Shown here: positions 9,367-33,618 of the stretch, piece after piece
Numbering within the stretch: the first letter of the stretch is position 1
How the letters are laid out: each line of letters begins with the position of its first letter
NCBI GenBank assembly: GCA_947447975.1
Contig: CANFLU010000001.1
Location: forward strand, 186,001 to 250,000
Origin: Comamonadaceae bacterium
GTDB taxonomy: Bacteria > Pseudomonadota > Gammaproteobacteria > Burkholderiales > Burkholderiaceae_C
Length of the DNA: 64,000 bases
Direction of reading: 5' to 3'
Notes under the pieces: generated by a model
Database searches by the model: none
Told to the model about the DNA's origin: nothing
The model's input: the letters and a program-made list of their open reading frames with translations, nothing else
Position numbers and translations under genes: made by a program

Positions 9367-12300
9367 TTACTTGGGTGTATTGCTGCGTTCCACCTTGGTG
9401 ACGCGCGGCTCCAACCAAGTGCCGTCAATGAAAAACTCATGCGTATTCGCCTGTACCAAGGGTTTGAGCAAGAGCCACTGTGCCAACAGCGAATAAATAC
9501 CCACCACCGGATTGACCGCTGTATAGACCAGGGCGGCACCGGCCGCATTGATCTCGGGGATAACCACCACCTTAATCGCCTGGGTTTCCTTGGCAATATC
9601 GGCGCTTCCTTCCATCAAAACGACCGCATTGGGGCCCTTCATTTGCAGATTATTGGTGCGGGCCTGACCTTGCGAAATATTGACGTCCCCGCGCACGAAA
9701 TCAAAGGTGAAACCTTCGCTAAACACATCGCGGAAATCAAGCAGCAAACGCCGTGGCAGCGATTGCAAGCTCAGCACACCCAGCAGCTTGCCAATGTTGG
9801 GCTCGCTTTTTAAAAACTGCCCGTCTTCTATATCCACGTTAAAGCTGCCGGTCATGCTGGGGTAGTCCACGGTGATGGGCGATCCCATCCATCCCACTTG
9901 CCCTTCTATTTTTCCTTTACCTCTGCGGATGACATTTTTCATACCGTAGCGTGCCAACAGGTCGCCCGAGTCTTTGATGTCGAGTTTGAAGTCCAGCTGT
10001 GTGCGGCGGCGGTCGCGCATGGATTCGGCGGGCGGGTTGACGGCTGCGCCTGACGACGCAGGTTGCAAGCGCCACGATCCACTGGCGTTCAGTACTGCTT
10101 CGGGCATATTCACATTAAAGCGCTTGAGCAGCCACTCGCGCTGCGTATCGCGGGCGGCGGGCGATACCTGGTTAATTGCTTCGACTTCCAGCCGCCCCAG
10201 CTTCCTGCCTTGCAGCTCAAACTCTTCTGCAACTACGTCCAGCGCCGGTATGCTGGAGGGCTGCTCGTCTAGCAACTTGTCCACTTCCTGTGCCGCACTG
10301 CTGTTGAGCGTGAGCCGGCTCAAGCGTGCAAACAGTCGGCCGGCATTGCTGCTATCTGTGGTCGTGCCGCCCAAGGAGGCTTGGCGGTATTCCAGTTGGC
10401 CGCTGAACTCGGTGGTCTCGACCTGCGAACGCCACAGGTTTGCGATGCGCGTAGCTTTGAGATTTACTGCGTGCACCGCATGGCCACTCCAGCTAATTTC
10501 TCGGGCGCGCAGCTGCAGCGCATTGGGAAGAAAATCAGTGCCCAGATCAAACTGCGGGGTGCTGATTTTTTTGCGCGTACCGACGCTAGTGCTTACACCG
10601 CTAAATAGGACCGACCAGCTATCCACATCCAGCGTGTCCATGCTCAGCCGTGCGGAAATGCCTTGCGCCGGCATGGTCATGGGCTCGTTAGCGCCCGCGC
10701 CCAGTGCGAGGGTGCCGCGCAGCACCCGCGGTGTGGCACTGGAGATATCGCGCAACAAATTCAAATTCGCGCTGGTTCCCAGAATCACTTGCCATTGTTC
10801 TTGGGTTTTTGCCAAGGCCGCACTATTGGAATCCAGTGGTGCTGCGACTTGCAGTCGCAGCGGCACCTGTGTTTCGGCGCCCTTGGCAAATGGCGCAGGC
10901 AGGGCCAGCGCCATGCCTTGCAAATTGGAACTCACGGTGATGTCTGGCACGCCGGCGCGCATCATGATTGCGGCCTGGTAATTGGTGGCACCCGTCGCAT
11001 AGTGCGCCAAGTTGGCCATGGCGCCTAGTTCGGTAGCTTCACGCAAACCTTCGGCGGCCACGCGTCCTTCCAGTCTGAGTACGGCGGGGCTGGCTTTCAG
11101 GCTGGCACCCCCGTCCGCACTTTTAGCCACAAGGGCTACTGCGTTCTCGGCTGGCGCGCCCATGCTCCCTAAGCTGCCGTCGATGCGCACGTCACCACCA
11201 AAAAGGCGCCCGGTCACCCCATTGACGTTGTAGCCATATTCGGTAAAGTTAATGGGTCCGCGCGCACGCAATACCCGTGGCGTCGTTGGCAAGATTTGTA
11301 CATCATTGCCTTGCAGATTGACACTGCCATTGACCGTCATGTGATTGGTATCGGCCAGTGGGAAATCGAGTTTGACGCGGTAATCGGCCAAGCCGTTGGC
11401 CGAAGCTTTTGCCAATGCTTGGCCCGTCATTTCCGCCAAGGGCGAGTTATTGCTCACGGCCAAGGCATCGGCCAGTGGGCCGCGCCCTTGCGCGTTGACT
11501 GAAACGGTTGAGTTGCCGTACAAATTGTTAATCACCGCGTCGCCGCGCCACATAGGCACCGTTCCCCACAGGCCACGCATGCCGTTGAGATAGAGCGCGC
11601 TTTGGTCGATCACCAATTCACCGGTGAGTTGGGTAAATACAGGCCATGGTGGCTTAGCCGTTGGCATGGGTGAGGCTGGTGCGTAGGCGTAAGTCGCATT
11701 ACTCAGGTTGGCCGAAATGCGGAAATCGCCTTGGCGCGGCTGGGCAAATGGAAAGTCGCGCAGGTTGCCTTTGAGTTTGAGCTTGATGTCCGAGGCGGTT
11801 CCTGCACGCACCGCATCGCGCAAATAATCGCGCAGGTCTTTCGACACAGACAGCGGTAAATAGCGCGGTACGCGGGCCAGGTCCAGCCGGGTGAAGCGCC
11901 CTTGCAGGTCCGTAAAGCCTGGTCCAGACCCGTTTGGCTGCACGGTCCATTGCCCATCTAATTCACCCTGCACATCGGCATTGACAAAGCGCACCTTACT
12001 GACGCTGACCGTCCAGCCCGCAGAAGCCTTCTTCCATTGCAGATCCGCGTTCAACTCCGTGACGGGCACCAGCGGCTCGACCAAGTGTTTTCCCCAATCT
12101 AAAACGCCTTTGTCTATGGCGAGATGCGCACGCCCACCACGTTCACTCAGATCCAGTTCCAAGTCCAGGCCGCGAACGCCTGGCGTCCCTTCGGCCTGCG
12201 CAGCAAACCCAGCCTGTCGGATACGGCCCTTCAGGGCGAACGTCTCCGGCGCGCTGGCAGCGCCCTTCCAAGAGGCTTGGAAATCTTGCACATTGCCAAG

Positions 12301-20429: not shown

Positions 20430-22808
20430 ATGCAACATCGATTCATTCCGGTGGCCATAGCCATCGGCCTATCTACATCCCTGGGTGCTTGGGCCCAACC
20501 AACTTCCACAGACCCTTCGCAAGAGCAAGCGCCAGTGAAATCTTTGGGCATAGTCACCGTTTTCGGCAGCCGCCCCAGTTCCTTACCTACGCAAATTCCC
20601 ACCACGATTGAAGGCATTACCCGCACGCAAATGGAGCAAACTATTAACGCGACAGACAGCGAAGACGTGCTCAAGTACTTTCCCAGCCTGGTCGTACGGC
20701 GGCGTTATATCGGCGACTACAACCATGCAGTGCTTTCCAGTCGGGCTTCCGGTACTGGCAATAGTGCGCGCTCGGCCGTCTATGCCGATGGCATTTTGTT
20801 GTCCAACTATTTAGGCAATGGCGCCACGTATGCGCCGCGCTGGGGCATGGTCACGCCTGAAGAGATCGAGCGCGCAGACGTGATGTATGGCCCGTTTTCC
20901 GCAGCCTACCCCGGCAATTCGGTGGGTGCGGTGGTGGACTATGTCACCCGGATGCCAAAGCAGTTCGAAGGACACGCGCAAATCGTGGTCTCGCAGCAAA
21001 ACTTTGACTTGTACAACACGCACGAGACCGACTTTGCCACCCAGGCCAGTGCCTCGCTAGGCAGCAAGAGCGGCGACTGGGCGTGGTGGGTGAACATCAA
21101 CCGCACCGATAGCCAGGGCCAACCGCTGGTGTTTGCGACCAAATCCTTCACGGTCGATCCGACCAAGAGCAGCAATAACGGCGCGGTGTATGGTTTGGAT
21201 AAAACCAATACGCCTTGGTACATCCTAGGCACCAATACCCAGTACCACACGGTACAAGAGCACGCCAAACTCAAATTGGCCTATGACTTGTCCCCCACCG
21301 TACGCGCAAGTTACACGCTGGCTAATTGGAAAAACACCTCCGACGGTACGGCCAAAAGCTACCTGACGGACACGGCCAATCCCTATGGCGGTAATCATGT
21401 CATCAGCGGGCAGACCTTCTCCGCCAACGGCTTGTTCAATGCCACCCAAGAGCGCTTAGACCATTGGATGCACGGCCTGTCAGTCAAGAGCAATACCAAG
21501 GGCGAGTGGGATTGGGAGCTGGCTGCTAGTCGGGTGGACTACGGCACTGACCAGGCCCGCCAGTCTTCTATCAATAGCGCCGCCAATCTCAACGGCACCA
21601 TGGGCAACGGCAGTGCCGCCACATTGACCGACCAAAACGGCACGGGCTGGACCACGCTGGCGGTCAAAGGCATCTGGCGCCCCCAAGGCCTGCAGGGCGC
21701 GCACCTGGTGGATTTTGGTGTCCAGCAAGATAGCTACCAACTGCGCGTCCTGAAGTCCAACCTGAGTGCTACCGACAACTGGTTTACCAGCAGCGCGGCC
21801 AGTCTAAGCGCCGACGTAGGCGGTCAAAGCAAGCTGCAAAGTATTTACGCGCAGGACGCTTGGGCGTTTGCGCGAGACTGGAAAACCGTGTTGGGCTTGC
21901 GACTGGAAAATTGGAGTGCATCGGACGGCTATGCCGTAACCACTGCGGCCACGGATCGCTATGCCCCGCGCAATGAGTTTTTCGCCTCGCCCAAAGCCGC
22001 ATTGGCTTACCAATGGTCACACGATACGGTGCTCAAAGGCTCGCTTGGGCGAGCGGTTCGTATGCCAACCGTGTCTGAGCTCTACGGCGCTACTGCGAGC
22101 AAATGCGTGGACATCAACCCCGCCAAGAAAATTGTCAGCAGCGCCTGTACCAGCGGGCAGACGTGGTTGAACGAGCCCAATCTGCGACCGGAAAAATCCT
22201 GGACAACAGAGCTTACATTGGAAAAAGAACTGGGTAATGGACTCTTGCGGCTGACCTATTTCAATGAGGATGTGGCAGACGCGCTGTACTCGCAAGTGGC
22301 AGGCCTCAAGACCGACAACACCCCGGTCAACATGGTGCAAAACATTGACGCCATCAGCACGCATGGCTTAGAGATGGCATTTCAGGGAGAGAACCTTCTC
22401 ACCCATGGCCTGGACCTGTCGGGCAGCGTGACCTATGCCGACTCGCGCATCCAAGCGAATAGCTCCTACGTGGCCACACCTGGCGACACCATTGGCAAAT
22501 TGCAGCCCCGCGTACCGCAGTGGCGCGCCACTGCGCTAGCCAATTACCACTGGAACCCGCAACTGAGCACCTCCTTGGGCTTGCGTTACAGCTCCGACCA
22601 GTTCAGTAGTTTGAACAACACGGATATCAACGGATTTGCTTACACCGCCGCAAGCCGATTTACCGTACTGGACCTTCGGGTGCGCTATGCCATCCAGCCC
22701 AAACTGGTAGCCGCCTTTGGCGTTGACAACCTGACCAATCAAGCGTACTGGAACTTCCACCCCTATCCGGGGCGCACCTTGGTTGCAGAGCTGCAATACG
22801 CGCTGTAG
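20430..22808 (+). CDS. TonB-dependent outer-membrane receptor, probably copper-related
   Basis: 792-residue beta-barrel receptor. A signal peptide ends at about residue 22 (LGAWA). A plug domain (roughly 55-190) has LKYFPSLVVRRR, SAVYADGILL and VMYGPFSAAYPGNSVG. The barrel ends in FGVDNLTNQAYWNF and a final strand closing in LQYAL rather than the more common aromatic. The plug and barrel resemble OprC/NosA-type copper receptors, and the upstream copper-binding genes support copper as cargo. The cargo is inference, as no ligand residues can be assigned with certainty. It is the last gene of the copper cluster, convergent with the deaminase gene 22 bases downstream. Confidence 0.88.
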   Translation: MQHRFIPVAIAIGLSTSLGAWAQPTSTDPSQEQAPVKSLGIVTVFGSRPSSLPTQIPTTIEGITRTQMEQTINATDSEDVLKYFPSLVVRRRYIGDYNHAVLSSRASGTGNSARSAVYADGILLSNYLGNGATYAPRWGMVTPEEIERADVMYGPFSAAYPGNSVGAVVDYVTRMPKQFEGHAQIVVSQQNFDLYNTHETDFATQASASLGSKSGDWAWWVNINRTDSQGQPLVFATKSFTVDPTKSSNNGAVYGLDKTNTPWYILGTNTQYHTVQEHAKLKLAYDLSPTVRASYTLANWKNTSDGTAKSYLTDTANPYGGNHVISGQTFSANGLFNATQERLDHWMHGLSVKSNTKGEWDWELAASRVDYGTDQARQSSINSAANLNGTMGNGSAATLTDQNGTGWTTLAVKGIWRPQGLQGAHLVDFGVQQDSYQLRVLKSNLSATDNWFTSSAASLSADVGGQSKLQSIYAQDAWAFARDWKTVLGLRLENWSASDGYAVTTAATDRYAPRNEFFASPKAALAYQWSHDTVLKGSLGRAVRMPTVSELYGATASKCVDINPAKKIVSSACTSGQTWLNEPNLRPEKSWTTELTLEKELGNGLLRLTYFNEDVADALYSQVAGLKTDNTPVNMVQNIDAISTHGLEMAFQGENLLTHGLDLSGSVTYADSRIQANSSYVATPGDTIGKLQPRVPQWRATALANYHWNPQLSTSLGLRYSSDQFSSLNNTDINGFAYTAASRFTVLDLRVRYAIQPKLVAAFGVDNLTNQAYWNFHPYPGRTLVAELQYAL

Positions 22809-22830: not shown

Positions 22831-23880
22831 CTAGGAAGTGGCTAGCGCCTGGTCAAACACGTGGTCGAGCGTCGTCCGCCATAGCACTTTGTCTGCTTCA
22901 GGCGCAAAGCTGGCATCGATGCTGTTACGGGCCAACTGCCACGCGTCCTGCCCGCTCAGCTCAGGCAGTGCGGCAAACACGGCTTCGAAGTTGCTAAGCA
23001 GGTAGCCGCCAAAATAGGCGGGGTCATCCGAGTTGAGGGTGATGCACAGCCCGGCATGCAGCAGTGTGGCCAGGTTGTGCTCTTGCATGGTGTTGAACAC
23101 ACAGAGCTTCACGTTGGACAGCGGGCATACGGTCAGCGGCATGCGGCTGTCGGCCAGGCGCTGTACCAGCACTGGGTCCTCGCTGCAGCGCACGCCGTGG
23201 TCGATGCGCTCCACGTGCAAGACATCGAGCGCACTTTCGATATAGGCCGGCGGCCCTTCCTCACCTGCATGGGCCACGATGCGCAGGCCCAGTGCACGGC
23301 ACTTGGCAAAAACGCGGGCAAATTTTTCTGGTGGGTTGCCGCGTTCTCCCGAGTCCAGGCCCACGCCGATAAAGTGCGCGCGGTAAGGCAAGGCTGCCTC
23401 CAAAGTATCAAAGGCAGATGCTTCGGACAAGTGGCGCAAAAAGCACAGGATCAGGCTGGCGCTGATACCCCAGTGGGCTTTGGCGTCCGCGCAGGCCCGT
23501 GCCAGCCCTTGGATCACTGCGCCCATGGGAACGCCGCGTTCGGTATGGGTTTGCGGGTCAAAAAACAATTCGGCATGCACGATATGGTCGGCATGCGCCC
23601 GCGCAAAGTAGGCCATCGCCATGCGGTAAAAATCGTCTTCCTCTATCAGCACGGAAGCACCGGCGTAATACAAATCCAAAAAGCTTTGCAAGTCGGTAAA
23701 CGCATAGGCTGCGCGCAAAGCCTCTACGCTGGGGTAGCTGAGCGTGATGCCGTTTTTCGCGGCCAGCGCAAATATCAGTTCTGGCTCCAAAGAGCCCTCG
23801 ATATGGATGTGCAACTCGGCTTTGGGCATGCGCGCCAGTAAGGCGGAAAGGTGGTTGCGGGCGATAGTGGCGTAGGTCAT
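22831..23880 (-). CDS. Adenosine/adenine deaminase family protein (likely adenine deaminase type)
   Basis: 349-residue zinc amidohydrolase. Metal and catalytic residues are all visible: His24 and His26 (AELHIHIEGS), His204 and Glu207 (VAHAGEEG), His228 (DHGV), Asp285 and Asp286 (NSDDP). The segment PLSNVKLCVF resembles bacterial and fungal adenine deaminases more than true adenosine deaminases, so conversion of adenine to hypoxanthine is my preferred reading; I cannot confirm it. It is the last gene of an operon that begins at 28839, 23 bases after a cyclo-ligase-like gene, so it probably processes the compound taken up by the ABC transporter or a product of it. Confidence 0.85.
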   Translation of the reverse strand: MTYATIARNHLSALLARMPKAELHIHIEGSLEPELIFALAAKNGITLSYPSVEALRAAYAFTDLQSFLDLYYAGASVLIEEDDFYRMAMAYFARAHADHIVHAELFFDPQTHTERGVPMGAVIQGLARACADAKAHWGISASLILCFLRHLSEASAFDTLEAALPYRAHFIGVGLDSGERGNPPEKFARVFAKCRALGLRIVAHAGEEGPPAYIESALDVLHVERIDHGVRCSEDPVLVQRLADSRMPLTVCPLSNVKLCVFNTMQEHNLATLLHAGLCITLNSDDPAYFGGYLLSNFEAVFAALPELSGQDAWQLARNSIDASFAPEADKVLWRTTLDHVFDQALATS

Positions 23881-23903
23881 GGTGAGGGGCTCCCGTAAAG
23901 CGC

Positions 23904-24665
23904 TCAGGCCAGTGGCGGCAAAGCCGCTTCCATGGCTTGCAGCTCTTGCAATGGCGGTATGGTGGCTAGCATCTGCGGGTCCAGCATATCCCAGACGATG
24001 CCACAGCGCGGCTTGTGCGGGTTGGTCACTTCTATCGTGCGCGTGGGCGTAAAAATCGCGTCGGCTACGGTGTCAAAAATCTCGGGGTACAAAGTCTCTT
24101 GTAGCACTTGGCAATCGTGCACCAGCGCCGCCGTAGGCGTTTGCGCATGGATCACGCCGATGCGGTAGAGCATGCCCCATTCCGCATCAAAAAAACCATG
24201 GCCTTTGCCAAAGCGCACGCCGTGCTCATTGATAGCGCCGGTGCCGGTAATCATGTAGTCCAGACGCGGTAGCTCAGCGCGAATTTGTGCCAACGTCATA
24301 TGCCGCCCGTGGCGCTCCATGCCGTCGAGTGTGGCGGCATACAGCAAGCGGTCTTTGGGTATGGTGGCCGGATCCAGCAGCCAAAAGCCCCGGCGTATGG
24401 AATAGGTGGTCATCAAGATGCGCTTGCCTTCGCACAGCGTACGGTAGCGCAGCTCTTCGATGCAGTTGTCTGGCGTGATGAAGATGCATTCGGACTGTTG
24501 GTAATACCGGTGCGCCATCAAGCGATCAGTAGCCGCGCTACTGCCCACAAAGTCGGTGATGAATTCGCCGAAATCAAAATGAAAACGGCTATCGGCAAAA
24601 GCCACTTCGCGCAGTGCGGCAAACACGCGTTCGCGCACCGTGTGTTTATGGTCGGTGTGTTCCAT
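23904..24665 (-). CDS. 5-formyltetrahydrofolate cyclo-ligase-like protein, copy B
   Basis: 253-residue protein of the 5-FCL/MTHFS fold. The nucleotide-binding signature appears as GVRFGKGHGFFD at 149-160, in the MTHFSD-like form rather than the usual RLGxGxGYYD. Paralogous to the protein at 28102-28839 in the same operon: both share ADSRFH, an EFIxDFxGS segment and FxTPDN. Canonical enzymes convert 5-formyl-THF to methenyl-THF with ATP. Whether this branch does that is unknown, and another substrate is likely given two copies beside a transporter. The start at 24665 has GAAGGAAA upstream; the longer frame would abut the permease stop. Confidence 0.75.
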   Translation of the reverse strand: MEHTDHKHTVRERVFAALREVAFADSRFHFDFGEFITDFVGSSAATDRLMAHRYYQQSECIFITPDNCIEELRYRTLCEGKRILMTTYSIRRGFWLLDPATIPKDRLLYAATLDGMERHGRHMTLAQIRAELPRLDYMITGTGAINEHGVRFGKGHGFFDAEWGMLYRIGVIHAQTPTAALVHDCQVLQETLYPEIFDTVADAIFTPTRTIEVTNPHKPRCGIVWDMLDPQMLATIPPLQELQAMEAALPPLA

Positions 24666-24704
24666 AGGCTTATTTCCTTCAATCAAAAAAAGTGGGCTGC
24701 GCAC

Positions 24705-26279
24705 TCAGGCCGCAGGCGCCATCGCATAGCGTTGCAGCACGTAGCGCTCCAGTACCACGACCAGGCTATTGAGCAGTACGGCGATGAGGATGGCCACCAC
24801 CGCTACGCTCCATATCATTCCGAAATCGAGCACGCCGCGCGACACATTGAGCAAATTGCCGATGCCGGTGCCAGTGGCCAGCCATTCGGCAATCATCACG
24901 CCCAAAAACGCGCGTGGTGCCGCCAAGCGCGCTGCGGCGCATAAATACGGCAAGGCCCAGGGCAGCGCAATCAGGCGCAACTGCCGCCAGCGCCCGGCGC
25001 CATACACACGCACAAAATCGGTAGCGCTGCTTGGCACCAGTGCCAGCCCTTGGGCAATCGTCACAAAGGCGGGGAAAAACGTTACCGACACTGTCACCAC
25101 CAAGATGCTTGCGGTGCCGCGCCCGAACACCAGCACCACTAATGGCGTCAGCGCCACCAGTGGCATGGATTGGCTGACCAAGGCCACCGGCATCAGGCTG
25201 AGGCCCAGCGCCTTATAGACCGTGGTGCTCACCGCCAGCAACAGCGCCACCGCCAGCCCCGCCAGCATGCCCAGCACGGTGTAGGGCAAGGTTTGCGACA
25301 GCGCATCAAGTAAGAGTTCGCGGTTCTCGGCCGCGTTGTCCGCGGCAAACAAATGTTCCAGCACGCCTGCCGGTCCGCGCAGCACGATATCGGACACGCC
25401 CAGCAAGGTGAACAGCGCAATCACCCCGTACCACAACACAAAAGGCATGGCCAGCGTACCCAGGCGCATGGCCCAGCGCGTGGCTGCGCTTTCGGTATCC
25501 AAGCCCGCCTGAAAACCCAGCGGCGTGCTGGCGCTTTGGGTGTCGCCCGCAAAGCGCGCCGCGATCAGGCCCGCGCAGCCGTACGCGATGCCGCTAACTG
25601 CCGTGGCCGTGAGGCCAATCCCCCACAAGCGCGCTGGGTCGGCCCGGCCTAGCGAGCCGATTAAATAGGTGCCCAGCCCGGCATTGCCGCCGCTGCCAAA
25701 CTCCGCCAGTATCGAGCCCAGCACCGCGGCGGGCGCTGCAACGCGTAAACCGGCTAGCAAGCTTGGCAAGCCGCTACGCAATCGGATGCGGCGCAGTATT
25801 TGTGCATCACTGCCGCCATACACGCGCACCAGGTCCACCAAGCGCGCGTCCACCTGCGTCAGGCCCAGGACCGTGGCGACCATGGTCGGGTAATACACCG
25901 ACAGCGCGGCCAGCACCACGCGCGGTGTATCGCCAGGCAAAGCGATCACCAAAATCGGCACCAGCGCAATCGCTGGCATGGCAAACAAGCTTACGTTGAC
26001 ACCGGCCATCAAGCGCCCTGCAGGACGCCACCACGCAAACCACATGCCCATCAATACCGCGACCGTATTGCCGATCAAAAAACCAACAAAAGCGGTTTTG
26101 AGCGTGCCCCAAATATGCGGCGGGTAGTCGCCTCGGTCCAGCCACCATTGGCGCAGGATGCCGCTGGGAGCAGGCAGAGCACCTTGGCCTACCCATTGGG
26201 CCCGTCCTGCCAATTCCCACAGCAGTAGCATCAGCAGCAAGCCGGGCAAGGCCGCGCGGTGGCGTGTGGGCGTGTCCAT
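24705..26279 (-). CDS. ABC transporter permease, two fused permease domains
   Basis: 524-residue inner-membrane protein made of two tandem BPD-type permease halves, roughly residues 1-255 and 265-524, each with about six helices. Each half has its own coupling region: DLVRVYGGSDAQILRRIRL in the first and DFVRVYGAGRWRQLRLIAL in the second. Usual NitT/TauT/SsuC or ThiX permeases are about 250-280 residues and dimerise; here the dimer is encoded as one chain. Its neighbours are the ATPase and an NMT1-type binding protein, so a complete importer is encoded. The substrate is unknown; an N-heterocycle such as a pyrimidine, purine or pterin is a guess from context. Confidence 0.88.
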   Translation of the reverse strand: MDTPTRHRAALPGLLLMLLLWELAGRAQWVGQGALPAPSGILRQWWLDRGDYPPHIWGTLKTAFVGFLIGNTVAVLMGMWFAWWRPAGRLMAGVNVSLFAMPAIALVPILVIALPGDTPRVVLAALSVYYPTMVATVLGLTQVDARLVDLVRVYGGSDAQILRRIRLRSGLPSLLAGLRVAAPAAVLGSILAEFGSGGNAGLGTYLIGSLGRADPARLWGIGLTATAVSGIAYGCAGLIAARFAGDTQSASTPLGFQAGLDTESAATRWAMRLGTLAMPFVLWYGVIALFTLLGVSDIVLRGPAGVLEHLFAADNAAENRELLLDALSQTLPYTVLGMLAGLAVALLLAVSTTVYKALGLSLMPVALVSQSMPLVALTPLVVLVFGRGTASILVVTVSVTFFPAFVTIAQGLALVPSSATDFVRVYGAGRWRQLRLIALPWALPYLCAAARLAAPRAFLGVMIAEWLATGTGIGNLLNVSRGVLDFGMIWSVAVVAILIAVLLNSLVVVLERYVLQRYAMAPAA

Positions 26280-26289
26280 TGGCTACCCG

Positions 26290-27057
26290 CTAGGCCGTGC
26301 CGTACAAAATACCGGCTACTTGTTGCTCCAGCGCGCGGAATGCAGTGCTGTTAAACAAGTCCACTGTGCGTGGCCTGGCAAAAGGTACCTCTACGATCTG
26401 CGCAATGCGCCCGGGCTGGCTTTGCATTACCGCCACGCGGTCGGCCAAAAACAAGGCCTCGTCAATACCATGCGTGACCAGCAGCGTGGTAGTGGGCCGC
26501 TCCAGCCAAATGCGTTGCAACTCCAGGTTCATGCTGCGGCGCAGGATTTGGTCCAGCGCGCCAAAAGGCTCGTCCAGCAACAGCACTTCGGGCTGCGTCA
26601 CCAGCGCGCGCGCAATCGCCACCCGCTGGCGCATACCGCCCGAAAGCTGTGAAGGTAGCGCGCTTTCAAAACCTTGGAGGCCTACCAACTCCACCAGGCT
26701 GCGGATGCGCGCCATGTCCACCGGCGCACCGGTCACATCCAGTGGCAAGCGCACGTTGTCCACCACCGAGCGCCATGGCAACAGCGCTGCGTCTTGAAAC
26801 GCAATGCCCAGCGCACCACGTTGCTGCAAAGCCAATGGCGACTCTTCGCCAATGCGCACCGTGCCGCTATCGGGCTGCTCCAGCCCAGCCACCAGACGCA
26901 GCAAGGTGGACTTGCCGCAGCCCGAAGGCCCGATCAGCGCGGTAAACGAACCATCGGGGCAGTGCAAAGAAACATGCTCCAGCGCCACCAAAGGGGGGGC
27001 GCCGGAGACGGCGAACACGCGCCCGACCTGGGCTATGCGCAGTTCGCTGTTGCGCAT
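26290..27057 (-). CDS. ABC transporter ATP-binding protein (NitT/TauT/SsuB type)
   Basis: 255-residue ATPase. Walker A is GPSGCGKST, the Q-loop lies in [12 protein letters not shown], the signature is [15 protein letters not shown], Walker B is [12 protein letters not shown] and the H-loop is [10 protein letters not shown]. The start ATG overlaps the stop of the binding-protein gene by one base (TGATG), and the permease follows 10 bases downstream, so the three transporter genes are translationally coupled. The family imports sulfonates, nitrate, taurine or thiamin precursors; nothing in the ATPase itself fixes the cargo. Confidence 0.92.
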
Positions 27058-28022
27058 CAGATTTCTTTGAGCAAGCTGGTGTCAAAGTGCGATTTGTCGG
27101 CCTTCACATTGACGGCGTTGAGTGCGGCAATGCAGTTGGCAATCGACTCATCGCTCATGGCGAACACGCCGCCGGCGTTGGCGATCAAAGGCTTTTGGGC
27201 TTCGTTAAAGAACAACTCGTTTTCTATGCTGCGGCCGGTCCCTTTGAACCAGGTGTCTTTGAACTTGGGTGGATAGGCCTTGGTGTCTTTGAAGTTTTCG
27301 TCCCAGCCCTTGCGGCTGGCGCGCATAAAGGCCACTATATCTTTGCGGCGGGCCTTTAGGGTCTCTTGCGTGACCACCACCACGTCGTTAAACAGTGGCA
27401 GCTTGAAGTCTGCCAGCAGGAAACTGGTGGCATCTTTGCCCATGCTCTTGATGGTGAAAGGCACGTTGGTGGTGAAGTCCAGCGAACCGTCTATTTCACC
27501 CTTGATCAAGGGCGTCGGATCGTAGGCATAAGGCACAATCTTGACCTTGGCTTTGTCGATGCCGTTGAGCTTGAGCATGGCCTCGACGGTTAGGCGGTTG
27601 ACCGGTGGCACGGCAATGGTTTTGCCGATCAGGTCTTGCGGTGTTTTCAATGGCTTGGAGGCCAGGCTGACGATGCCGACAGGGTTCTTCTGGTATTGCG
27701 CCCCGATGATGACCAGCGGTGCTTTTTGGTCGGTAATGGCTTTGATGGCAGTTTCCACCGTGGTCAGGCACACATCGGCTTTTTTGGACAAGAGCGAGGC
27801 CTCTGGGATCACGTCCGGGCCGCCGGACAAATACGTCAGGTCCAGACCTTCGGCTTTGTAAAACCCTTTGTCCATAGCCACAAAGTAGCCCATGAATTCG
27901 GCGTCGTTCACCCATGCTGCTTGCATGGTGAGTTTGGCGGCGCTTTGGCTCCAGGCGCCCATGGGCGCCATAGACGCCAAGGCGGCGGAAGTGGCAAGAA
28001 ACTGGCGGCGTGATGCTTTCAT
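27057..28022 (-). CDS. ABC transporter substrate-binding protein, NMT1/THI5-like
   Basis: 321-residue exported binding protein. The N-terminus [16 protein letters not shown] has a twin-arginine signal, with cleavage likely near AWSQS at about residue 25. The NMT1/THI5 fold is indicated by [19 protein letters not shown], the ligand-loop [11 protein letters not shown] and [16 protein letters not shown]. Homologues bind pyrimidine-like thiamin precursors, riboflavin, nitrate or sulfonates. The DVIPE loop resembles that of pyrimidine/nucleobase-type binders, but the substrate is inference. Start 28022 was chosen because it has AAAGGATG upstream and gives the clean Tat signal. Confidence 0.88.
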
Positions 28023-28101
28023 GGTGTCATCCTTTGAAGGTGTGAAGTTAAAAAACAAGGGGCGGGGAAATCGGTACAAAAATGCGTTGAGAAAATGGTC
28101 T

Positions 28102-28839
28102 TCAGGCCAGGCCGATGATGCGTCGCAACTCGGCCAAAGCGGGAATGGCGCGCACTTGCTCGGGTGTGATGTCTTTCCAGTTCAGGCCGCGCGGGCGCTG
28201 GGTTTCGCGCGCCACTTGCAGGCTGCGCGTCGGGGTACAGATCCAGTCCACCAGTACATCGTCGGGGCTGGGGTAGAGCTTTTTGTCTAGCACCTGCACA
28301 TCGTGCACCACGGTCACCAGCGGCGTGAGGTTGTCCACCAGGCCCATGTCGCTGAAGATGCGCCACTCCAGATCAAAAAAACCGTGGCCGCGCCCAAAGC
28401 GCACGCCCGAGGTCGCCACTGCCGAGGCCCCTGTCGCTACAAAATCGAAAGCGCCCAAATCGGCCAATGCGTTGAGCGTCAGCGGCTCGCCAAAATGCGC
28501 CAGCCCGTCGGGCCAGGCGCCATAGAGTTCATGGCCTGTGGGCACTGCGCCCGGGCGCAGCAAGTAAAAGCCGCTGGCCATGTTGTAGCTGGACACCACC
28601 AGGCTCACGCCGCGCGCCAACAGGCGCTGACGCAGGCCGGTAAGGCTGTTGTCTGGCGTGACAAATACATGGCGCGCCGCATCAAAACCGGGTAGGGCCC
28701 ACAGCCGGTCTAGCGCGGCATCAGAGCCAATGAAATCGGGGATGAACTCGGAAAAGCGCAAATGAAAACGCGAGTCCGCCAGCGCCACGGCGCGCAGGCC
28801 GTCCCACAGTTGTTCACGGGCAAAAGCGGAAGCGGCCAA
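28102..28839 (-). CDS. 5-formyltetrahydrofolate cyclo-ligase-like protein, copy A
   Basis: 245-residue 5-FCL/MTHFS-fold protein and the first gene of the transporter operon. Its signature is GVRFGRGHGFFDLEW at 145-159. It shares ALADSRFHLRFSEF and TPDNSLTGLRQ with the paralogue at 23904-24665. The start is TTG at 28837-28839, with AAGGA six bases upstream; no ATG in frame covers the conserved N-terminus. Two paralogues at opposite ends of a transporter operon suggest a role in using the imported compound, perhaps opening or closing a formylated or pterin-like ring. That role is speculative; a housekeeping folate-repair role is the alternative. Confidence 0.72.
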   Translation of the reverse strand: MAASAFAREQLWDGLRAVALADSRFHLRFSEFIPDFIGSDAALDRLWALPGFDAARHVFVTPDNSLTGLRQRLLARGVSLVVSSYNMASGFYLLRPGAVPTGHELYGAWPDGLAHFGEPLTLNALADLGAFDFVATGASAVATSGVRFGRGHGFFDLEWRIFSDMGLVDNLTPLVTVVHDVQVLDKKLYPSPDDVLVDWICTPTRSLQVARETQRPRGLNWKDITPEQVRAIPALAELRRIIGLA

Positions 28840-28875
28840 TCGGTGTCCTTGTGCGTGGGTTTGACAAATCCAAGG

Positions 28876-28917
28876 CTTGCGGCCCGGCCTGATCGCGGCA
28901 CATCGGGGGGCCGCAAG
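28876..28917. other. 10-bp perfect inverted repeat in operon leader
   Basis: CTTGCGGCCC at 28876-28885 and GGGCCGCAAG at 28908-28917 form a perfect stem with a 22-base loop. A transcript of the transporter operon starting near the promoter at 28921-28970 would carry it in its 5' leader. It may act as an mRNA stabilising or attenuating hairpin, or as a protein-binding site. Confidence 0.5.
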
Positions 28918-28920
28918 GCT

Positions 28921-28970
28921 GGAACCATTGTTTCAGATATTCATAGTATCATGGAATGATTGTTTCAACC
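28921..28970 (-). promoter_or_regulatory. Candidate promoter and RpiR-type operator of transporter operon
   Basis: Two direct copies of GGAAnnATTGTTTCA lie at 28921-28935 and 28953-28967, 32 bases apart (about three helical turns). On the minus strand TTGAAA-N17-TATGAA makes a good sigma-70-type promoter. One repeat covers the -35 and the other the expected start point, a layout suited to repression by the divergently encoded RpiR-type protein. Operator assignment is inference from position and symmetry. Confidence 0.6.
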
Positions 28971-29068
28971 ACCGCCTTTTGGCCCATGCCCCAGCGCCTG
29001 CATTTACGGGTCACCATGCCCCTTTGTCCTGTTGGCGGCGGCCCCGTTCGACTTGCGATACTGCGGCC

Positions 29069-29917
29069 ATGACTACCCGCCTGACGCTGGCTATACAAGA
29101 GCATTTTGAGCAGCTCTCGCCCAGCGAGCGCAAATTGGCCAAGCTCTTATTGGATCGCGCCGACGACATGCTCACCTATTCGGCCACCGAGCTGGCGGCC
29201 ATGGCCGATGTGTCTAAGGCCACGGCGGCGCGTTTGTTTCGCAGTCTGGGTTATGCCGATTTCAACGAGGTGCGTTTGCAAGCGCGCGAAGAGCGTAACC
29301 TGGCCCCGCCGTTTCAGGCGCCGCGCCTGTCAGGGGCAAGGGCACCCGTGCGCGCCCACAGCATCAGCGCGCATTTGCAAACCGAGTCGGAAAGTCTGGC
29401 GCGCACCTTCGAGTCCCTGCGCAGCGACACCTTGCTGGCAGCCGCCAGCGTGTTGGCCAAGGCGCCCAAAGTCTGGCTACTGGGGCTGGGCATGGACGAG
29501 GGTCTGATGCGTTTTGTGCGCCCGCAGCTGGCGCGTATTCGGCCCGAGGTCTATGCGCTGGGCATGCAAAGCGGCGTCTGGGCCGAAGACTTGGCGATGG
29601 CAGGCCCGCGCGATGCGCTGCTGCTCATCATGACCCAACCCCGCGACAGTGCTATGGACCGCCTTGCCGCACACGCTGGCACCACCCGCGTGCAAACCGT
29701 GGCCGTGGTCGATGTGCGCCATAGCGCATGGGCGCAGCGCTTCTCCAGCGTGGTGCTGCCCTGCTACAGCAGCAGCACCGATTACGCCTTCTCCGCTATG
29801 GCGGCCACCAGCATGTTGCAACTGCTCAGCCACCACGTCGCTATGCGTTTGGGCAAACGCGCCCAGCAACGCCAGCAACTGGTAGACGACATCGCGCAGG
29901 AGCTAGGCGGCGATTAG
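29069..29917 (+). CDS. MurR/RpiR family transcriptional regulator
   Basis: 282-residue regulator. The N-terminal RpiR helix-turn-helix (about 1-77) has LSPSERKLAKLLLDRADDM and VSKATAARLFRSLGYADF. The C-terminal SIS sugar-isomerase domain (about 120-260) has VWLLGLGMDEG and ALLLIMTQPRD. SIS domains of this family usually sense phosphosugars, but members next to transport operons sense diverse metabolites. It is divergent from the transporter operon, so it very probably regulates it. The ATG at 29069 is used because it starts the conserved HTH domain; the upstream extension is not homologous-looking. It is convergent with the capA-like gene, 21 bases away. Confidence 0.9.
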   Translation: MTTRLTLAIQEHFEQLSPSERKLAKLLLDRADDMLTYSATELAAMADVSKATAARLFRSLGYADFNEVRLQAREERNLAPPFQAPRLSGARAPVRAHSISAHLQTESESLARTFESLRSDTLLAAASVLAKAPKVWLLGLGMDEGLMRFVRPQLARIRPEVYALGMQSGVWAEDLAMAGPRDALLLIMTQPRDSAMDRLAAHAGTTRVQTVAVVDVRHSAWAQRFSSVVLPCYSSSTDYAFSAMAATSMLQLLSHHVAMRLGKRAQQRQQLVDDIAQELGGD

Positions 29918-29938: not shown

Positions 29939-31021
29939 TTACTTCAGCGTCGGATCTGCCAGCACCTTGCCCGGCTTGGGTAAGCCAGTGGGGCCGATGT
30001 GCGAAACGTGGGCCTCTACTTTTTGAACCCCGTTTTTGTCCAACTCCATGCGCAAGGCCCAGCCAATGTAGTTGATGGGCAGCGGAAAGCCGTCGAACAC
30101 AAAATTGCCCAGGCTGTAAAAAATCGGCTTGCCCTTGTAGCGCTCTGTATCCTGCAACTGGTGCGGGTGGCCGCCGATCACGGCGTCGGCGCCAGCGTCG
30201 ATCATCAGGCGTGCCAACTGGCGTTGGCGGTCATTGGCAATGGGCTCTTCCCATCCCCAGTGCATCACCGGAATCACGACATCGGCTTTGTACACCGCGC
30301 GCGCGGCGCGGATGTCGCGCAGCACTTGCGAATCCTCGCTCCAGGCCACGCCCGGTCGGTCGGTGTCGGCTTCAAAACTGCGCGGTTGAAACTCGTCGTA
30401 ACCCAGGATAGCCACGCGCACGCCTTTGCGCTCGATGATCCAGGGCGTATGCGCCTCGGTCAGGTTCATACCGCCGCCATAGAAGCCGATTTGATTTTGC
30501 TTGAGCAAACCCAGCATCTGCGCAAAAGCCTGCGGCCCGAAGTCGCCCGAATGGTTGTTGGCCAAGCCCACCGCGTCAAAGTGGCGCTGGATGTACTTTA
30601 AAGCGCGCGGATGCACGCGAAACACATTGGGCTTGTCGTCCTCTGGGCTGCCGGTGGTGGCGACCACGCATTCCAGGTTGCCGATGCGTATGTCCGCCCC
30701 CGCAAACAAACGGGCAAAGCCGGCATACGGGTCCTGCCCTTTGCGCATGGCGTCCATGGGCCCGTCTTCCAGCATCATGTCGCCCACGACCACCAGGGAC
30801 AAAGGCCCTTCAGCGTCCGGCCTGCGCGCCGGAGCGTTGGCCGGCGCTTTGGCCGTGCGGTGAACTTTGTGTGGGTGCTGCGTCTTGGCGTGGGTTTTGG
30901 ACTTGGCAGGTTTGTCTGTGACTGGTGTTGCGCCCGCTTCTGCGGCTGTCACCGGCGGCGTAGCAAATGCCAGCAGTAAAGCGCCAGCGGCGAGCGCGGC
31001 AAAAAGTGTGCTGCGCATCAT
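29939..31021 (-). CDS. CapA family metallophosphatase-like protein
   Basis: 360-residue exported protein of the PgsA/CapA type (poly-gamma-glutamate capsule synthesis family, calcineurin-like fold). A signal peptide (ending about VTAAEA) and a Lys/His/Pro-rich linker are followed by VVGDMMLEDGPMD, IGNLECVVATTG, GLANNHSGDFGPQA, VMHWGWEE and GGHPHQLQ, the metal-site blocks of the fold. No other capsule genes are nearby, so a role in poly-gamma-glutamate is doubtful; periplasmic phosphatase activity is a looser inference. The start at 31021 has GAGGTGG upstream and overlaps the stop of the preceding gene by 4 bases (ATGA). Confidence 0.87.
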   Translation of the reverse strand: MMRSTLFAALAAGALLLAFATPPVTAAEAGATPVTDKPAKSKTHAKTQHPHKVHRTAKAPANAPARRPDAEGPLSLVVVGDMMLEDGPMDAMRKGQDPYAGFARLFAGADIRIGNLECVVATTGSPEDDKPNVFRVHPRALKYIQRHFDAVGLANNHSGDFGPQAFAQMLGLLKQNQIGFYGGGMNLTEAHTPWIIERKGVRVAILGYDEFQPRSFEADTDRPGVAWSEDSQVLRDIRAARAVYKADVVIPVMHWGWEEPIANDRQRQLARLMIDAGADAVIGGHPHQLQDTERYKGKPIFYSLGNFVFDGFPLPINYIGWALRMELDKNGVQKVEAHVSHIGPTGLPKPGKVLADPTLK

Positions 31022-31482
31022 GGCGCCACCTCGGCCAGGGCGCATTGGTATTGCAGCTCTTTGCCTAGCAACGGCGAGTACAAAGAAACCCGGCCCGTCA
31101 GGGCATCAGGCTTGGGCGCGGTCTGCGCCACCGGCTGTAAAAAACGCGTGTGCTGCATGACCATGGGCTGGCGGCGTGTGTTGTAGTACACGTACAAGTT
31201 AATGCTCTCCAGGCCAGAGGCGCCACCGGCATCCGGCCCTGCGGCTAGCACTATGGCCTTAAAGCGAAAGCGATTGCCAATGGCCACCGCCTCGGTGGTG
31301 TAGGGGTCGGTCACCACGCCAAAGGTCTTGTGGTGGGTTTCGGAGTTCACGTCAAAGCTGCACTGCAACTGCGGTGCGGCCCGCGCGGCCAGCGGGCAGG
31401 CCAGCAGGGCAAGGCCGAGCGCGGCGGCGGCGGTTTGCAGCGGGCGCTGTGCTTGGAGTCGAGGGAGGAGGTCAAGGGCCAT
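31018..31482 (-). CDS. Hypothetical exported protein upstream of capA-like gene
   Basis: 154-residue protein that I do not assign to a family. A signal peptide is visible (hydrophobic run AALGLALLACPLA, cleavage after AARA at about residue 35). The mature part opens with PQLQCSFDVNSE, contains a second Cys near the end (LQYQCALAEVAP) that could form a disulfide with it, and has an aromatic-rich INLYVYYNTRRQPM segment suggesting a beta-sandwich. Its stop overlaps the start of the capA-like gene, so the two are translationally coupled and may work together in the periplasm. The start at 31482 has no clear ribosome site; a longer N-terminus is possible. Confidence 0.6.
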   Translation of the reverse strand: MALDLLPRLQAQRPLQTAAAALGLALLACPLAARAAPQLQCSFDVNSETHHKTFGVVTDPYTTEAVAIGNRFRFKAIVLAAGPDAGGASGLESINLYVYYNTRRQPMVMQHTRFLQPVAQTAPKPDALTGRVSLYSPLLGKELQYQCALAEVAP

Positions 31483-31704: not shown

Positions 31705-31800
31705 AAAATTGAAGGGCAAACCCGGTGAAAACCGCTGACGCAAAGCCACCGAACTAAAGCGCCAGCCATTGGCGCAACGTCAGCGGGGCCGCTAGATGGG
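31705..31800 (+). ncRNA. GEMM-I (cyclic-di-GMP class I) riboswitch
   Basis: The conserved blocks occur in order: AGGGCAAACC (31713-31722), a GAAA tetraloop (31727-31730), GACGCAAAGCCACCG, CTAAAG, a variable CGCCAGCCATTGGCG hairpin, then GTCAGCGGGG, closely following the Vibrio Vc2 aptamer. The second G of AGGG corresponds to Vc2 G20, the form associated with cyclic-di-GMP; the cGAMP-responsive variants have A there. It sits 51 bases ahead of the glycosidase start. A competing stem GGCCGC/GCGGCC (about 31787-31816) links the aptamer's 3' end with the leader and could be the expression platform. Confidence 0.88.
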
Positions 31801-31851
31801 ATGGGCACATGCGGCCTGACTCCAAACTCCTCGGACCCGCAAACAAACACC

Positions 31852-32610
31852 ATGAAAAATTTATTTTCCACCCTGGCCTTTGCCCTAATGAGCCTCGCCA
31901 TGCTCGGCCAAAGCCAAGCCGCCGATACCAAAAAAGGGATTGGCTTGGCGGAGTCCCAAGGCTTGGGTGATAGCCAGCTGCAAGACTTGCAGGTCGCTTG
32001 GTATTACAACTGGGGCCCGCAATCGCAGATCAAAACCCGCGTTCCATTCGTACCCATGGCATTTAGCCCGGCGAGCATTGCCAAGCTGCCTAGCAATGTG
32101 CCGATCGTGCTGGGTTTTAACGAACCAGATAATGCTAAGCAGTCCGATTTGCGAGTTTCTGACGCGGTAGCTGCATGGCCCAGCCTGCAAGCCCGTGCAC
32201 AGTCGCTAGGTGCGCCCGCTACGGCGGGCAACCCGCTCAAAAAAGCCTCGTGGCTGGACGAATTCATGCGCGCAGCGCCTAAGGTCGATTTCATTACCTT
32301 ACATTGGTACAAAGGTGTGAACGCCAAGCAGTTCATCGCGGATGTGCAAGCTTTGTGTGACACCTATAAAAAGCCCGTTTGGGTCACCGAGTTCGCTCCA
32401 CAGACTGCGGGGGGCGCACGCGAGAAACCCGATCGCTTTACGCAAGAGCAGGTTGATGCGTTTATGCAGACCACTATCGCTTGGATGGAAAATTCATCCT
32501 GCGTACAGCGCTACGCTTGGCATGACGCCAAGCTTGGTACATCTAAACTTTTCGACGGACAGGAACTTAGTGCCACGGGCAAGACGTATGCCCGCCTTGG
32601 CCAAAGGTAA
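31852..32610 (+). CDS. Secreted GH128-type glycosyl hydrolase under riboswitch control
   Basis: 252-residue exported protein with a signal peptide ending QSQAA at about 24. The domain is the Asl1-like/GH128 glycosyl hydrolase catalytic fold: AWYYNWG (49-55), GFNEPD with the predicted acid/base Glu91, HWY (151-153) and VWVTEFA with the predicted nucleophile Glu180. GH128 enzymes cut beta-1,3-glucans. The actual polysaccharide here is unknown and could be the cell's own matrix. A GEMM-I riboswitch lies in its leader, so expression should follow intracellular cyclic-di-GMP. The start has only a poor ribosome site (ACCCGCAAACAAACACC), as expected if translation is RNA-controlled. Confidence 0.83.
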   Translation: MKNLFSTLAFALMSLAMLGQSQAADTKKGIGLAESQGLGDSQLQDLQVAWYYNWGPQSQIKTRVPFVPMAFSPASIAKLPSNVPIVLGFNEPDNAKQSDLRVSDAVAAWPSLQARAQSLGAPATAGNPLKKASWLDEFMRAAPKVDFITLHWYKGVNAKQFIADVQALCDTYKKPVWVTEFAPQTAGGAREKPDRFTQEQVDAFMQTTIAWMENSSCVQRYAWHDAKLGTSKLFDGQELSATGKTYARLGQR

Positions 32611-32685
32611 GCAGTGCGGTTCAAGCTGATTGCGCCAGCCATCAAGGCTTGCCTTACAGTAGGCATGCAACAACGCTGCCTTTCC

Positions 32686-33618
32686 ATGTCCCCCGTCCCC
32701 ACGCATATCGTCCTCCTAGGCGGCATCAATATGGATGTCTCCGTCTACGCCCACCATGCTTTGCGCGCGTGCGATTCCAACCCAGGGCGGGTGCAGTGCA
32801 GCCCCGGTGGCGTGGCACGCAATGTGGCGGAGAACTTGTTGCGTCTTGGGGTGGATGCGCGATTGCTAGGGGTCCTCGGCGACGACGTGTTCGGCCAGGC
32901 TTTGTGGCAATCTGGAGCGGCCATGGGGTTGGACATGCGCGCTTGCCTAACGCTGCCTGGTCAGCGTAGCGCCACCTATGTGTGCTTGCACCAAGCCGAT
33001 GGCGATATGGATGTGGCGGTGAACGACATGGACATCATGGATGCGCTCACGCCCGCGCTCTTGCAGCCGCAGATGGCCCTGTTGCGCAGCGCAGCGGTGC
33101 TGGTGGCGGACTGCAATTTGCGCCCCGATGTGTGGCAATGGCTGGCCGCCGAGGCGGCACACCCGGCGCTGTTTGCTGAGGCAGTGTCTGTAGCTAAGTG
33201 CGCACGCTTGGGCCCGGTGCTGCAGCATATCCACACGCTCAAAGCCAATCGCCTAGAGGCGCAGGCTTTGTGTAGCCGCGCCATTGATAGTGTGCAGGAG
33301 GCGTGCGATGCCGCGCTGGACTTGCACCGCCAGGGCGTAGGCCGGGTGTTGATCAGCTTGGGCGCCCAAGGCGTGGCCTGGTGCGATGCCGATGGCCGCT
33401 GTGGCCACTGCGCGGCGCGGGCAGTGCCGGTGCTCAGTGCCACGGGCGCGGGCGATGCGTTGATGGGCGGCTTGGTGTATGGTCACTTGCAGGGCTGGCC
33501 TCTGGAGGCGGCGCTGGAATGGGCCATGGCCTGTGCCGAAATCACTTTAGGCAGCCCCGCAGCCAATGCCCCGACGCTGAGCGTGCAGGCCGTACAAAAC
33601 TATTTGCAACACACCTGA
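32686..33618 (+). CDS. psuK: PfkB family kinase, probable pseudouridine kinase
   Basis: 311-residue ribokinase-fold kinase. The N-terminal VLLGGINMDV and SPGGVARNVAENLLRLG and the C-terminal LSATGATG-type anion hole (LSATGAGDALMGG, with the catalytic Asp) mark the PfkB family. It phosphorylates pseudouridine to its 5'-phosphate if the pairing with psuG two bases downstream holds, which is the main evidence for the substrate. A GTG-initiated frame begins at 32614, but the ATG at 32686 starts at the conserved first strand and is preferred. An additional ATG at 32665 is a further option. It follows the GH128 gene by about 75 bases, with no terminator seen. Confidence 0.87.
   Translation: MSPVPTHIVLLGGINMDVSVYAHHALRACDSNPGRVQCSPGGVARNVAENLLRLGVDARLLGVLGDDVFGQALWQSGAAMGLDMRACLTLPGQRSATYVCLHQADGDMDVAVNDMDIMDALTPALLQPQMALLRSAAVLVADCNLRPDVWQWLAAEAAHPALFAEAVSVAKCARLGPVLQHIHTLKANRLEAQALCSRAIDSVQEACDAALDLHRQGVGRVLISLGAQGVAWCDADGRCGHCAARAVPVLSATGAGDALMGGLVYGHLQGWPLEAALEWAMACAEITLGSPAANAPTLSVQAVQNYLQHT

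What the first reader, a model, noticed from the sequence alone, without database searches (positions are those of the whole stretch)
22831..29917. Undescribed-looking operon: two cyclo-ligase-like paralogues, an NMT1-type importer, a deaminase and an RpiR regulator
Six minus-strand genes form a tight unit (gaps of 23, 39, 10, -1 and 79 bases): FCL-like A, binding protein, ATPase, fused permease, FCL-like B and adenosine/adenine deaminase, divergent from an RpiR regulator. 5-FCL proteins normally occur as a single folate-repair gene. Two MTHFSD-like paralogues (GVRFGKGHGFFD and GVRFGRGHGFFD) bracketing an importer suggest a dedicated catabolic or salvage route, possibly for a purine, pterin or formylated N-heterocycle. 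The gene layout is seen; the substrate is inference.
Basis: partly seen in the sequence, partly recalled or inferred. Interest (0 to 1): 0.75.

Follow-up and report, generated by a model that had tools for sequence, protein, structure and literature searches.

The report
Conserved import-and-ring-repair operon making adenine
A small group of bacterial genes, found together in many different bacteria, probably imports a nitrogen-ring compound and turns it into adenine with an enzyme resembling a folate-repair enzyme, which would be a new salvage route if tests confirm it.

Summary
In detail: six minus-strand genes (22831-28839) form one tight operon, divergent from an RpiR regulator that starts at 29069, not 28877. 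It is not a local oddity. FCL-A, binding protein, ATPase and fused permease follow one another in 85 of 92 loci from Alpha-, Beta- and Gammaproteobacteria, 81 with the divergent RpiR gene. All 73 regulator/FCL-A gaps examined carry an operator-like palindrome, TGAAACN4GTTTCA, at one mismatch or less; exact copies are nearly unique per genome, so the module looks self-contained. The slot after the permease is the clue: of 77 readable loci, 31 hold FCL-B (9 of these also an ADA-family deaminase) and 4 an adenine deaminase of another family; 42 hold neither. Two deaminase families in one slot point to adenine. The binding protein's nearest solved fold binds a formamido-pyrimidine; FCL-A has the fold of MTHFS, which closes an N-formyl group onto an amine. 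Best reading: import of a ring-opened or N-formylated aminopyrimidine, FCL closure to adenine, and, where a deaminase is present, deamination. Ligand and chemistry are inferred. The published thiamin link of this paralogue family is not supported here, though not excluded.

The parts
29069..29917 (+). RpiR-family regulator, divergent; start 29069 rather than 28877
   Evidence: HTH_6 46 bits; SIS 24.3 bits, just under its 25-bit cutoff; start by comparison with relatives; divergent from FCL-A in 81 of the 85 core loci
28952..28967 (-). Operator-like site, 2 mismatches to TGAAACN4GTTTCA
   Evidence: seen as such in the near-identical locus L035; window coordinates
28920..28935 (-). Operator-like site, 1 mismatch to TGAAACN4GTTTCA, 32 bases from the other
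   Evidence: A site with at most 1 mismatch in 73 of 73 gaps; window coordinates
28102..28839 (-). FCL-A: 5-FCL-like enzyme, TTG start
   Evidence: PF01812 42.4 bits; fails TIGR02727 (25.1 vs 84.9 bits); AF2 pLDDT 90.2; first 12 Foldseek chains are 5-FCL/MTHFS or its relative YqgN (YqgN named)
27057..28022 (-). NMT1/ThiY-like substrate-binding protein with an RR signal
   Evidence: PF09084 143.5 bits; 75% mean column identity over 38 sequences, RR invariant; nearest folds 3ix1 and 4nmy
26290..27057 (-). ABC importer ATPase
   Evidence: ABC_tran 117 bits
24705..26279 (-). Fused double-length ABC permease (two BPD_transp_1 stretches)
23904..24665 (-). FCL-B: second 5-FCL-like enzyme, a separate clade
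   Evidence: PF01812 40.1 bits; 20.2 vs 84.9 bits on TIGR02727; clade of 24 of the 25 FCL-B rows at SH-aLRT 100
22831..23880 (-). Adenosine/adenine deaminase of the ADA family
   Evidence: PF00962 290 bits; NF006850 535.9 bits, cutoff 419; nearest solved chain 3ou8, E 1.1e-113

Best explanation
The operon is a self-contained, RpiR-controlled salvage module. The NMT1-type ABC importer takes up an aminopyrimidine or other N-heterocycle that carries a formamide (or is otherwise ring-opened). The 5-FCL-like enzyme activates the formyl oxygen with ATP and closes it onto the neighbouring amine, as MTHFS does on 5-formyl-THF, giving adenine. In this genome the deaminase then makes hypoxanthine for the general purine pool. 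FCL-A does this alone in the 46 of 77 readable loci without FCL-B; where FCL-B is present it has probably taken over the main catalytic role and FCL-A is relaxed, auxiliary or altered. Shown: gene linkage, conserved palindrome, families, folds, two deaminase families in one slot, lower conservation of FCL-A beside FCL-B. Inferred: ligand, ATP chemistry, direction of flow, binding of RpiR to the palindrome.
For: Core module in order in 85 of 92 loci. Palindrome in 73 of 73 gaps and in each of 11 further loci. Exact matches in 23 of 30 genomes searched, once per genome in 21 of the 23, so few other genes can share an exact copy. After the permease, among 77 readable loci: ADA-family deaminase in 9 and an adenine deaminase that passes TIGR01178 (576.5-605 bits, cutoff 472.5) in 4 of 4 tested, its tblastn match starting within 31 bases of the permease match; one of these was also checked in Pfam (PF13382). 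A short N-terminal match to it follows the permease in L109, perhaps a remnant. The two deaminases show no significant sequence similarity (BLASTP E 0.28). Binding-protein model closest to 3ix1, an N-formyl-4-amino-5-aminomethyl-2-methylpyrimidine binder. FCL-A model closest to MTHFS. Outside the module, an FCL-B relative lies by a nucleoside hydrolase in R. leguminosarum (L034) and FCL-A by a phosphorylase-superfamily gene in Kaistia (L050), each with a PfkB kinase and homologous ABC binding proteins, 72% identical.
Against: 42 of 77 readable loci have neither FCL-B nor a deaminase after the permease. The 9 ADA loci are all betaproteobacterial, 6 of them near copies of this one (97-99% FCL-B identity), and the 4 others come from alphaproteobacterial groups; independent events are few. 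In Salinicola L051 and L052 an ADA-family match lies about 4 kb beyond RpiR, not in the operon. 4 loci hold FCL-A without this importer. NCBIfam and the PDB entry name the ADA protein an adenosine deaminase; adenine activity of its nearest solved relative is recalled. Solved 5-FCLs have at least one tyrosine at the two aromatic places of the glycine-rich loop where these proteins mostly have Phe-Phe. FCL-A's fold match is moderate (TM 0.47-0.55 by query length). No ligand, activity or expression data.
Confidence: 0.42

Rival explanations
1. Thiamin-precursor salvage: the importer brings in FAMP or HMP-like pyrimidines and the FCL-like enzyme serves thiamin metabolism, as proposed for the COG0212 paralogue.
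For: A COG0212 paralogue is described as thiamin-associated and of unknown activity (passages of PMC4120688; a table row of PMC5041015; the primary paper was not held). Binding-protein folds nearest to FAMP- and thiamin-bound proteins and Thi5. ThiC not found in this genome nor in 29 of 40 other genomes that hold FCL-A; leaving out the three without the importer, 26 of 37. TenA lies beside the module, convergent, in Salinicola L064. A more distant FCL with a BMP transporter lies next to a thiamin operon in Roseicitreum.
Against: ThiC absence is not more common with FCL-A: in the G448 family 7 of 14 have ThiC against 129 of 283 others (Fisher p 0.79); in this genus 0 of 7 (one with FCL-B only) against 8 of 30 (p 0.31, too small to decide). 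Six thiamin proteins (ThiC not among them) against 92 loci gave one TenA hit. No TPP riboswitch in the window at Rfam's gathering score. Adenine deaminases are unexplained.
Confidence: 0.22
2. Uptake of adenine or an N6-substituted adenine such as a cytokinin, with the deaminase as the main enzyme and the FCL proteins as ATP-dependent helpers or sensors with another chemistry.
For: Adenine/adenosine deaminases in 13 of 77 readable loci; a cytokinin deaminase in the same ADA branch is recalled, not from a call.
Against: FCL-A is in all 85 core loci, the deaminase is not: 42 of 77 readable loci hold neither FCL-B nor a deaminase after the permease, so the FCL step must matter without it.
Confidence: 0.2
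3. Ordinary folate repair: both FCL genes are 5-formyl-THF cyclo-ligases beside an unrelated importer.
For: PF01812 family and MTHFS fold.
Against: Both miss the 5-FCL equivalog cutoff (25.1 and 20.2 vs 84.9 bits) while two other genes in this genome pass it (125.3 and 119.7 bits); FCL-A keeps company with the importer in 85 of 92 loci.
Confidence: 0.08

Closest known systems
5-formyltetrahydrofolate cyclo-ligase (MTHFS, PF01812, TIGR02727)
   Same: Fold and glycine-rich loop motif
   Different: Far below the equivalog cutoff; lies in an importer operon
COG0212 5-FCL paralogue, thiamin-associated
   Same: Paralogue of 5-FCL of unknown activity; that these proteins fall in COG0212 was not tested
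   Different: No thiamin gene found in these loci beyond one convergent TenA; adenine/adenosine deaminases instead in 13 of 77
ThiXYZ/ThiY FAMP importer
   Same: NMT1 binding protein with ATPase and permease; nearest solved fold 3ix1
   Different: Fused permease, RpiR gene, no TPP riboswitch match; 19% identity to 3ix1
Adenine/adenosine deaminases (ADA family with 3ou8; TIGR01178 ade)
   Same: Full-length family matches
   Different: Here part of the importer/FCL operon

Membership tests
5-FCL (TIGR02727) | Score above 84.9 bits | tested here: not met
   FCL-A 25.1, FCL-B 20.2 bits
5-FCL superfamily | MTHFS fold | tested here: met
   FCL-A model: first 12 Foldseek chains are 5-FCL/MTHFS or YqgN; FCL-B not modelled
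5-FCL | Cyclisation of 5-formyl-THF | not testable with these tools
   needs an assay
COG0212 thiamin paralogue | Clustering with thiamin genes | tested here: not met
   6 thiamin proteins against 92 loci: one TenA hit
COG0212 thiamin paralogue | Co-occurrence with lack of ThiC | tested here: not met
   ThiC in 7 of 14 vs 129 of 283 (p 0.79); 0 of 7 vs 8 of 30 (p 0.31, underpowered)
COG0212 | Match to the COG itself | not tested
   no COG library at hand
NMT1/ThiY binding protein | PF09084 and binding-protein fold | tested here: met
   143.5 bits; 3ix1 best fold
NMT1/ThiY binding protein | Binds a formamido- or aminopyrimidine | not testable with these tools
   needs a binding assay
RpiR regulators | HTH_6 plus SIS domain | tested here: inconclusive
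   HTH_6 46 bits met; SIS 24.3 vs cutoff 25
Adenine deaminase, ADA family | Family match | tested here: met
   NF006850 535.9 bits, cutoff 419; the model is named adenosine deaminase
Adenine deaminase, ADA family | Adenine rather than adenosine as substrate | not testable with these tools
   nearest chain 3ou8 is deposited as adenosine deaminase; adenine activity recalled

The most novel reading that the evidence does not exclude
The module is a formamidopyrimidine salvage system: it imports ring-opened adenine (FapyAde) or its relatives, released by DNA or RNA damage and repair, and the FCL-like enzyme recloses the imidazole ring with ATP to give adenine. That would be an enzyme that repairs a damaged purine base as a free metabolite, the small-molecule counterpart of folate repair by MTHFS.
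Probability: 0.18. Interest if true: 0.88.

Novelty: new variant of a known kind. Interest (0 to 1): 0.62.

Why it matters
5-FCL-like paralogues are often annotated as 5-FCL (as in the plasmid records), and one such family is described as of unknown activity, with thiamin the only lead seen here. This module gives a clean four-gene unit, a probable operator and a short ligand list, so the activity can be tested directly: one binding protein, one enzyme, one predicted product (adenine). If right, it adds a salvage route for ring-opened purines or related formamides.

Tried and rejected
Rejected: ordinary folate repair; thiamin salvage as the first choice (controls), though it stays the main rival. 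A wider regulon of the palindrome found no support: of 23 genomes with an exact match, 21 have one, G442 two and G449 four; G440's only exact match is not the module's own site, which has one mismatch there. L127 (G442) and L135 (G440) show no module-like gene; G449's extra sites were not read, and sites with mismatches were not searched genome-wide. Three of the 30 genomes (those of L050, L065, L070) hold FCL-A without the importer. Viral contigs: no relatives confirmed. Papers: nothing that names this operon appeared in the listings (open-access library; listings show titles and abstract starts, for large result sets only the top ones); I saw passages of five papers and read none whole. Chance of deaminase adjacency was not given a p-value because loci are related. 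The FCL-A/FCL-B pair counts (66 of 66; 28 of 28 with FCL-B against 41 of 91 without) use overlapping pairs from hand-chosen alphaproteobacterial loci (12; 8 and 14) and are not independent tests. The tree is a quick search with several long rows; 11 near-identical or incomplete loci were left out beforehand, and one FCL-B row (L162) was dropped because it did not translate cleanly. Only the best 80 of 236 confirmed relatives were kept by the scan.
Full report
Observation. The six genes are present as described, on the minus strand, with gaps of 23, 39, 10, -1 and 79 bases (starts as). Family scans give an A_deaminase, two 5-FTHF_cyc-lig proteins, a permease with two BPD_transp_1 stretches, an ABC ATPase, an NMT1 binding protein and an HTH_6/RpiR regulator. 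The RpiR gene begins at 29069, so 28840-29068 is a regulatory gap.

Not the folate gene. This genome has four PF01812 genes. Two elsewhere pass the 5-FCL equivalog cutoff of 84.9 bits (125.3 and 119.7); the two operon proteins do not (25.1 and 20.2). The assembly is given as 90% complete with 3.9% contamination, so one of the two ordinary copies could be foreign.

Distribution. Matches to an FCL-A query occur in 7 of 61 relatives and 11 of 369 genomes of the class at E 1e-3, in 8 of 385 of another class at 1e-25, and in 9 of 295 and 14 of 297 of two families at 1e-50. A scan of named genomes confirmed 236 relatives and kept 80. Of the other 7, three end at the contig edge and four (L050, L065, L070, L073) hold FCL-A without this importer. 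The loci come from Rhodobacterales, Hyphomicrobiales, Burkholderiales and Salinicola, among others. They were chosen by FCL similarity and include near copies. In the evenly drawn samples the strong hits carry the module: G365 and G444 in the short stretches read, and all 9 and all 14 of the two families, query genomes included. Hits of about 35% identity or less show no importer of this kind within the roughly 3.5 kb held.

Regulation. An inverted repeat TGAAACN4GTTTCA with at most one mismatch lies in 73 of 73 regulator/FCL-A gaps and in each of the 11 new loci. In this genus two copies sit 32 bases apart. In 30 genomes that hold FCL-A (three without the importer) an exact match was found in 23, once per genome in 21. 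In one of these 21, G440, the exact match is not the module's own site, and I read no module-like gene beside it or beside G442's extra site. So the module is probably its regulator's main target. That RpiR binds the repeat is inferred.

The slot after the permease. Of 83 loci with a good permease hit, 6 end too soon. Of the 77 readable, 42 have neither FCL-B nor a deaminase, 22 have FCL-B, 9 FCL-B plus an ADA-family deaminase, and 4 a deaminase that passes TIGR01178 (adenine deaminase), starting within about 31 bases of the permease match (Pfam check of one). A short N-terminal match to the latter follows the permease in L109. In two Salinicola loci an ADA-family match lies about 4 kb beyond RpiR instead. 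The two deaminases share no significant sequence similarity, though both belong to the amidohydrolase superfamily (recalled). The same type of reaction recruited from two families into one operon slot is the strongest evidence that adenine is the module's product or substrate. Because 42 loci do without it while FCL-A is always there, I place adenine after the FCL step.

Wider family. A relative of FCL-B in R. leguminosarum lies beside a nucleoside hydrolase (the frame found covers only its C-terminal part) and a PfkB kinase (the record is unannotated). In Kaistia, FCL-A with RpiR but without this importer lies beside a homologous ABC binding protein (72% identical), a PfkB kinase and a phosphorylase-superfamily protein. 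More distant FCL proteins lie with BMP-type transporters, once, in an unannotated record and by eye for the transporter, beside a cyanuric-acid-type ring-opening hydrolase, and once beside a thiamin operon. The common theme seems to be N-heterocycle uptake.

Structures. FCL-A model, pLDDT 90.2: the first 12 PDB chains are 5-FCL/MTHFS or YqgN, with TM 0.47-0.55 by query length. Binding-protein model, pLDDT 89.4: best 3ix1, the FAMP binder (TM 0.70, 19% identity), then thiamin-bound 4nmy and Thi5. The binding protein is very conserved (75% mean column identity over 38 sequences), which suggests one ligand across the module.

Two FCL clades. 24 of 25 FCL-B rows form one clade at SH-aLRT 100; the haloarchaeal row L029 falls beside it on a long branch. 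In 12 alphaproteobacterial loci with both genes, FCL-A pairs average 64% identity and FCL-B pairs 81%, A lower in 66 of 66 pairs. With the binding protein as yardstick, FCL-A is 14.6 points less conserved in 8 loci with FCL-B and level in 14 without. Changes reach the glycine-rich motif. FCL-B has probably taken over, or the two share the job. The pairs are not independent.

Thiamin tested. The COG0212 family is described as thiamin-associated and of unknown activity (passages). Here ThiC is missing from this genome and from 29 of 40 other FCL-A genomes, or 26 of the 37 with the importer, which looked suggestive. The controls show no association: 7 of 14 FCL-A genomes have ThiC against 129 of 283 others in one family (p 0.79), and 0 of 7 against 8 of 30 in this genus (p 0.31, too small to decide alone). 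Of six thiamin proteins, ThiC not among them, only TenA was found in the 92 loci, once and convergent. Thiamin is weakened, not excluded.

Verdict. A real, widespread module that I did not find described in the open-access listings searched. Most likely it imports a formamide-bearing or ring-opened aminopyrimidine and makes adenine from it with an MTHFS-like ring closure. The boldest form, salvage of ring-opened adenine, fits the chemistry of the enzyme family but is untested.

Noticed in passing
window 31705-31796: c-di-GMP-I riboswitch aptamer (60.8 bits) just upstream of a glycosyl hydrolase-like gene (31801-32610) and a PfkB kinase gene (32614-33618).
   Followed up: partly
window 20430-22808: TonB-dependent receptor convergent with the operon, 22 bases from the deaminase end; matched next to it also in L036 and L040, not in L042 or L044, the other close loci that reach that far. 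A DUF2946 gene precedes it.
   Followed up: partly
window 29939-31045: PGA_cap capsule-synthesis-type protein beyond the RpiR gene.
   Followed up: no
L028 6009-13078: Roseinatronobacter plasmid: the module lies next to a second, more distant FCL gene with its own BMP-type ABC importer and a LysR gene.
   Followed up: partly
L033 4843-9663: Allorhizobium plasmid, unannotated: distant FCL gene near a BMP-like importer (by eye), a cyanuric-acid-type ring-opening hydrolase and an isochorismatase, pointing to a pyrimidine or triazine pathway.
   Followed up: partly
L065 and L070 about 9995-10744: Kaistia soli and a Mesorhizobium carry FCL-A without the importer, among amidohydrolase-, nitrilase- and HyuA-like genes (names by eye).
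   Followed up: no
L029 8962-9726: A haloarchaeal plasmid carries an FCL-B-like gene (41%) with no transporter of this kind nearby.
   Followed up: no
L112 2292-3746: An amidase gene follows the RpiR gene in the same direction in Lichenifustis (Pfam); L067 looks alike by eye.
   Followed up: no
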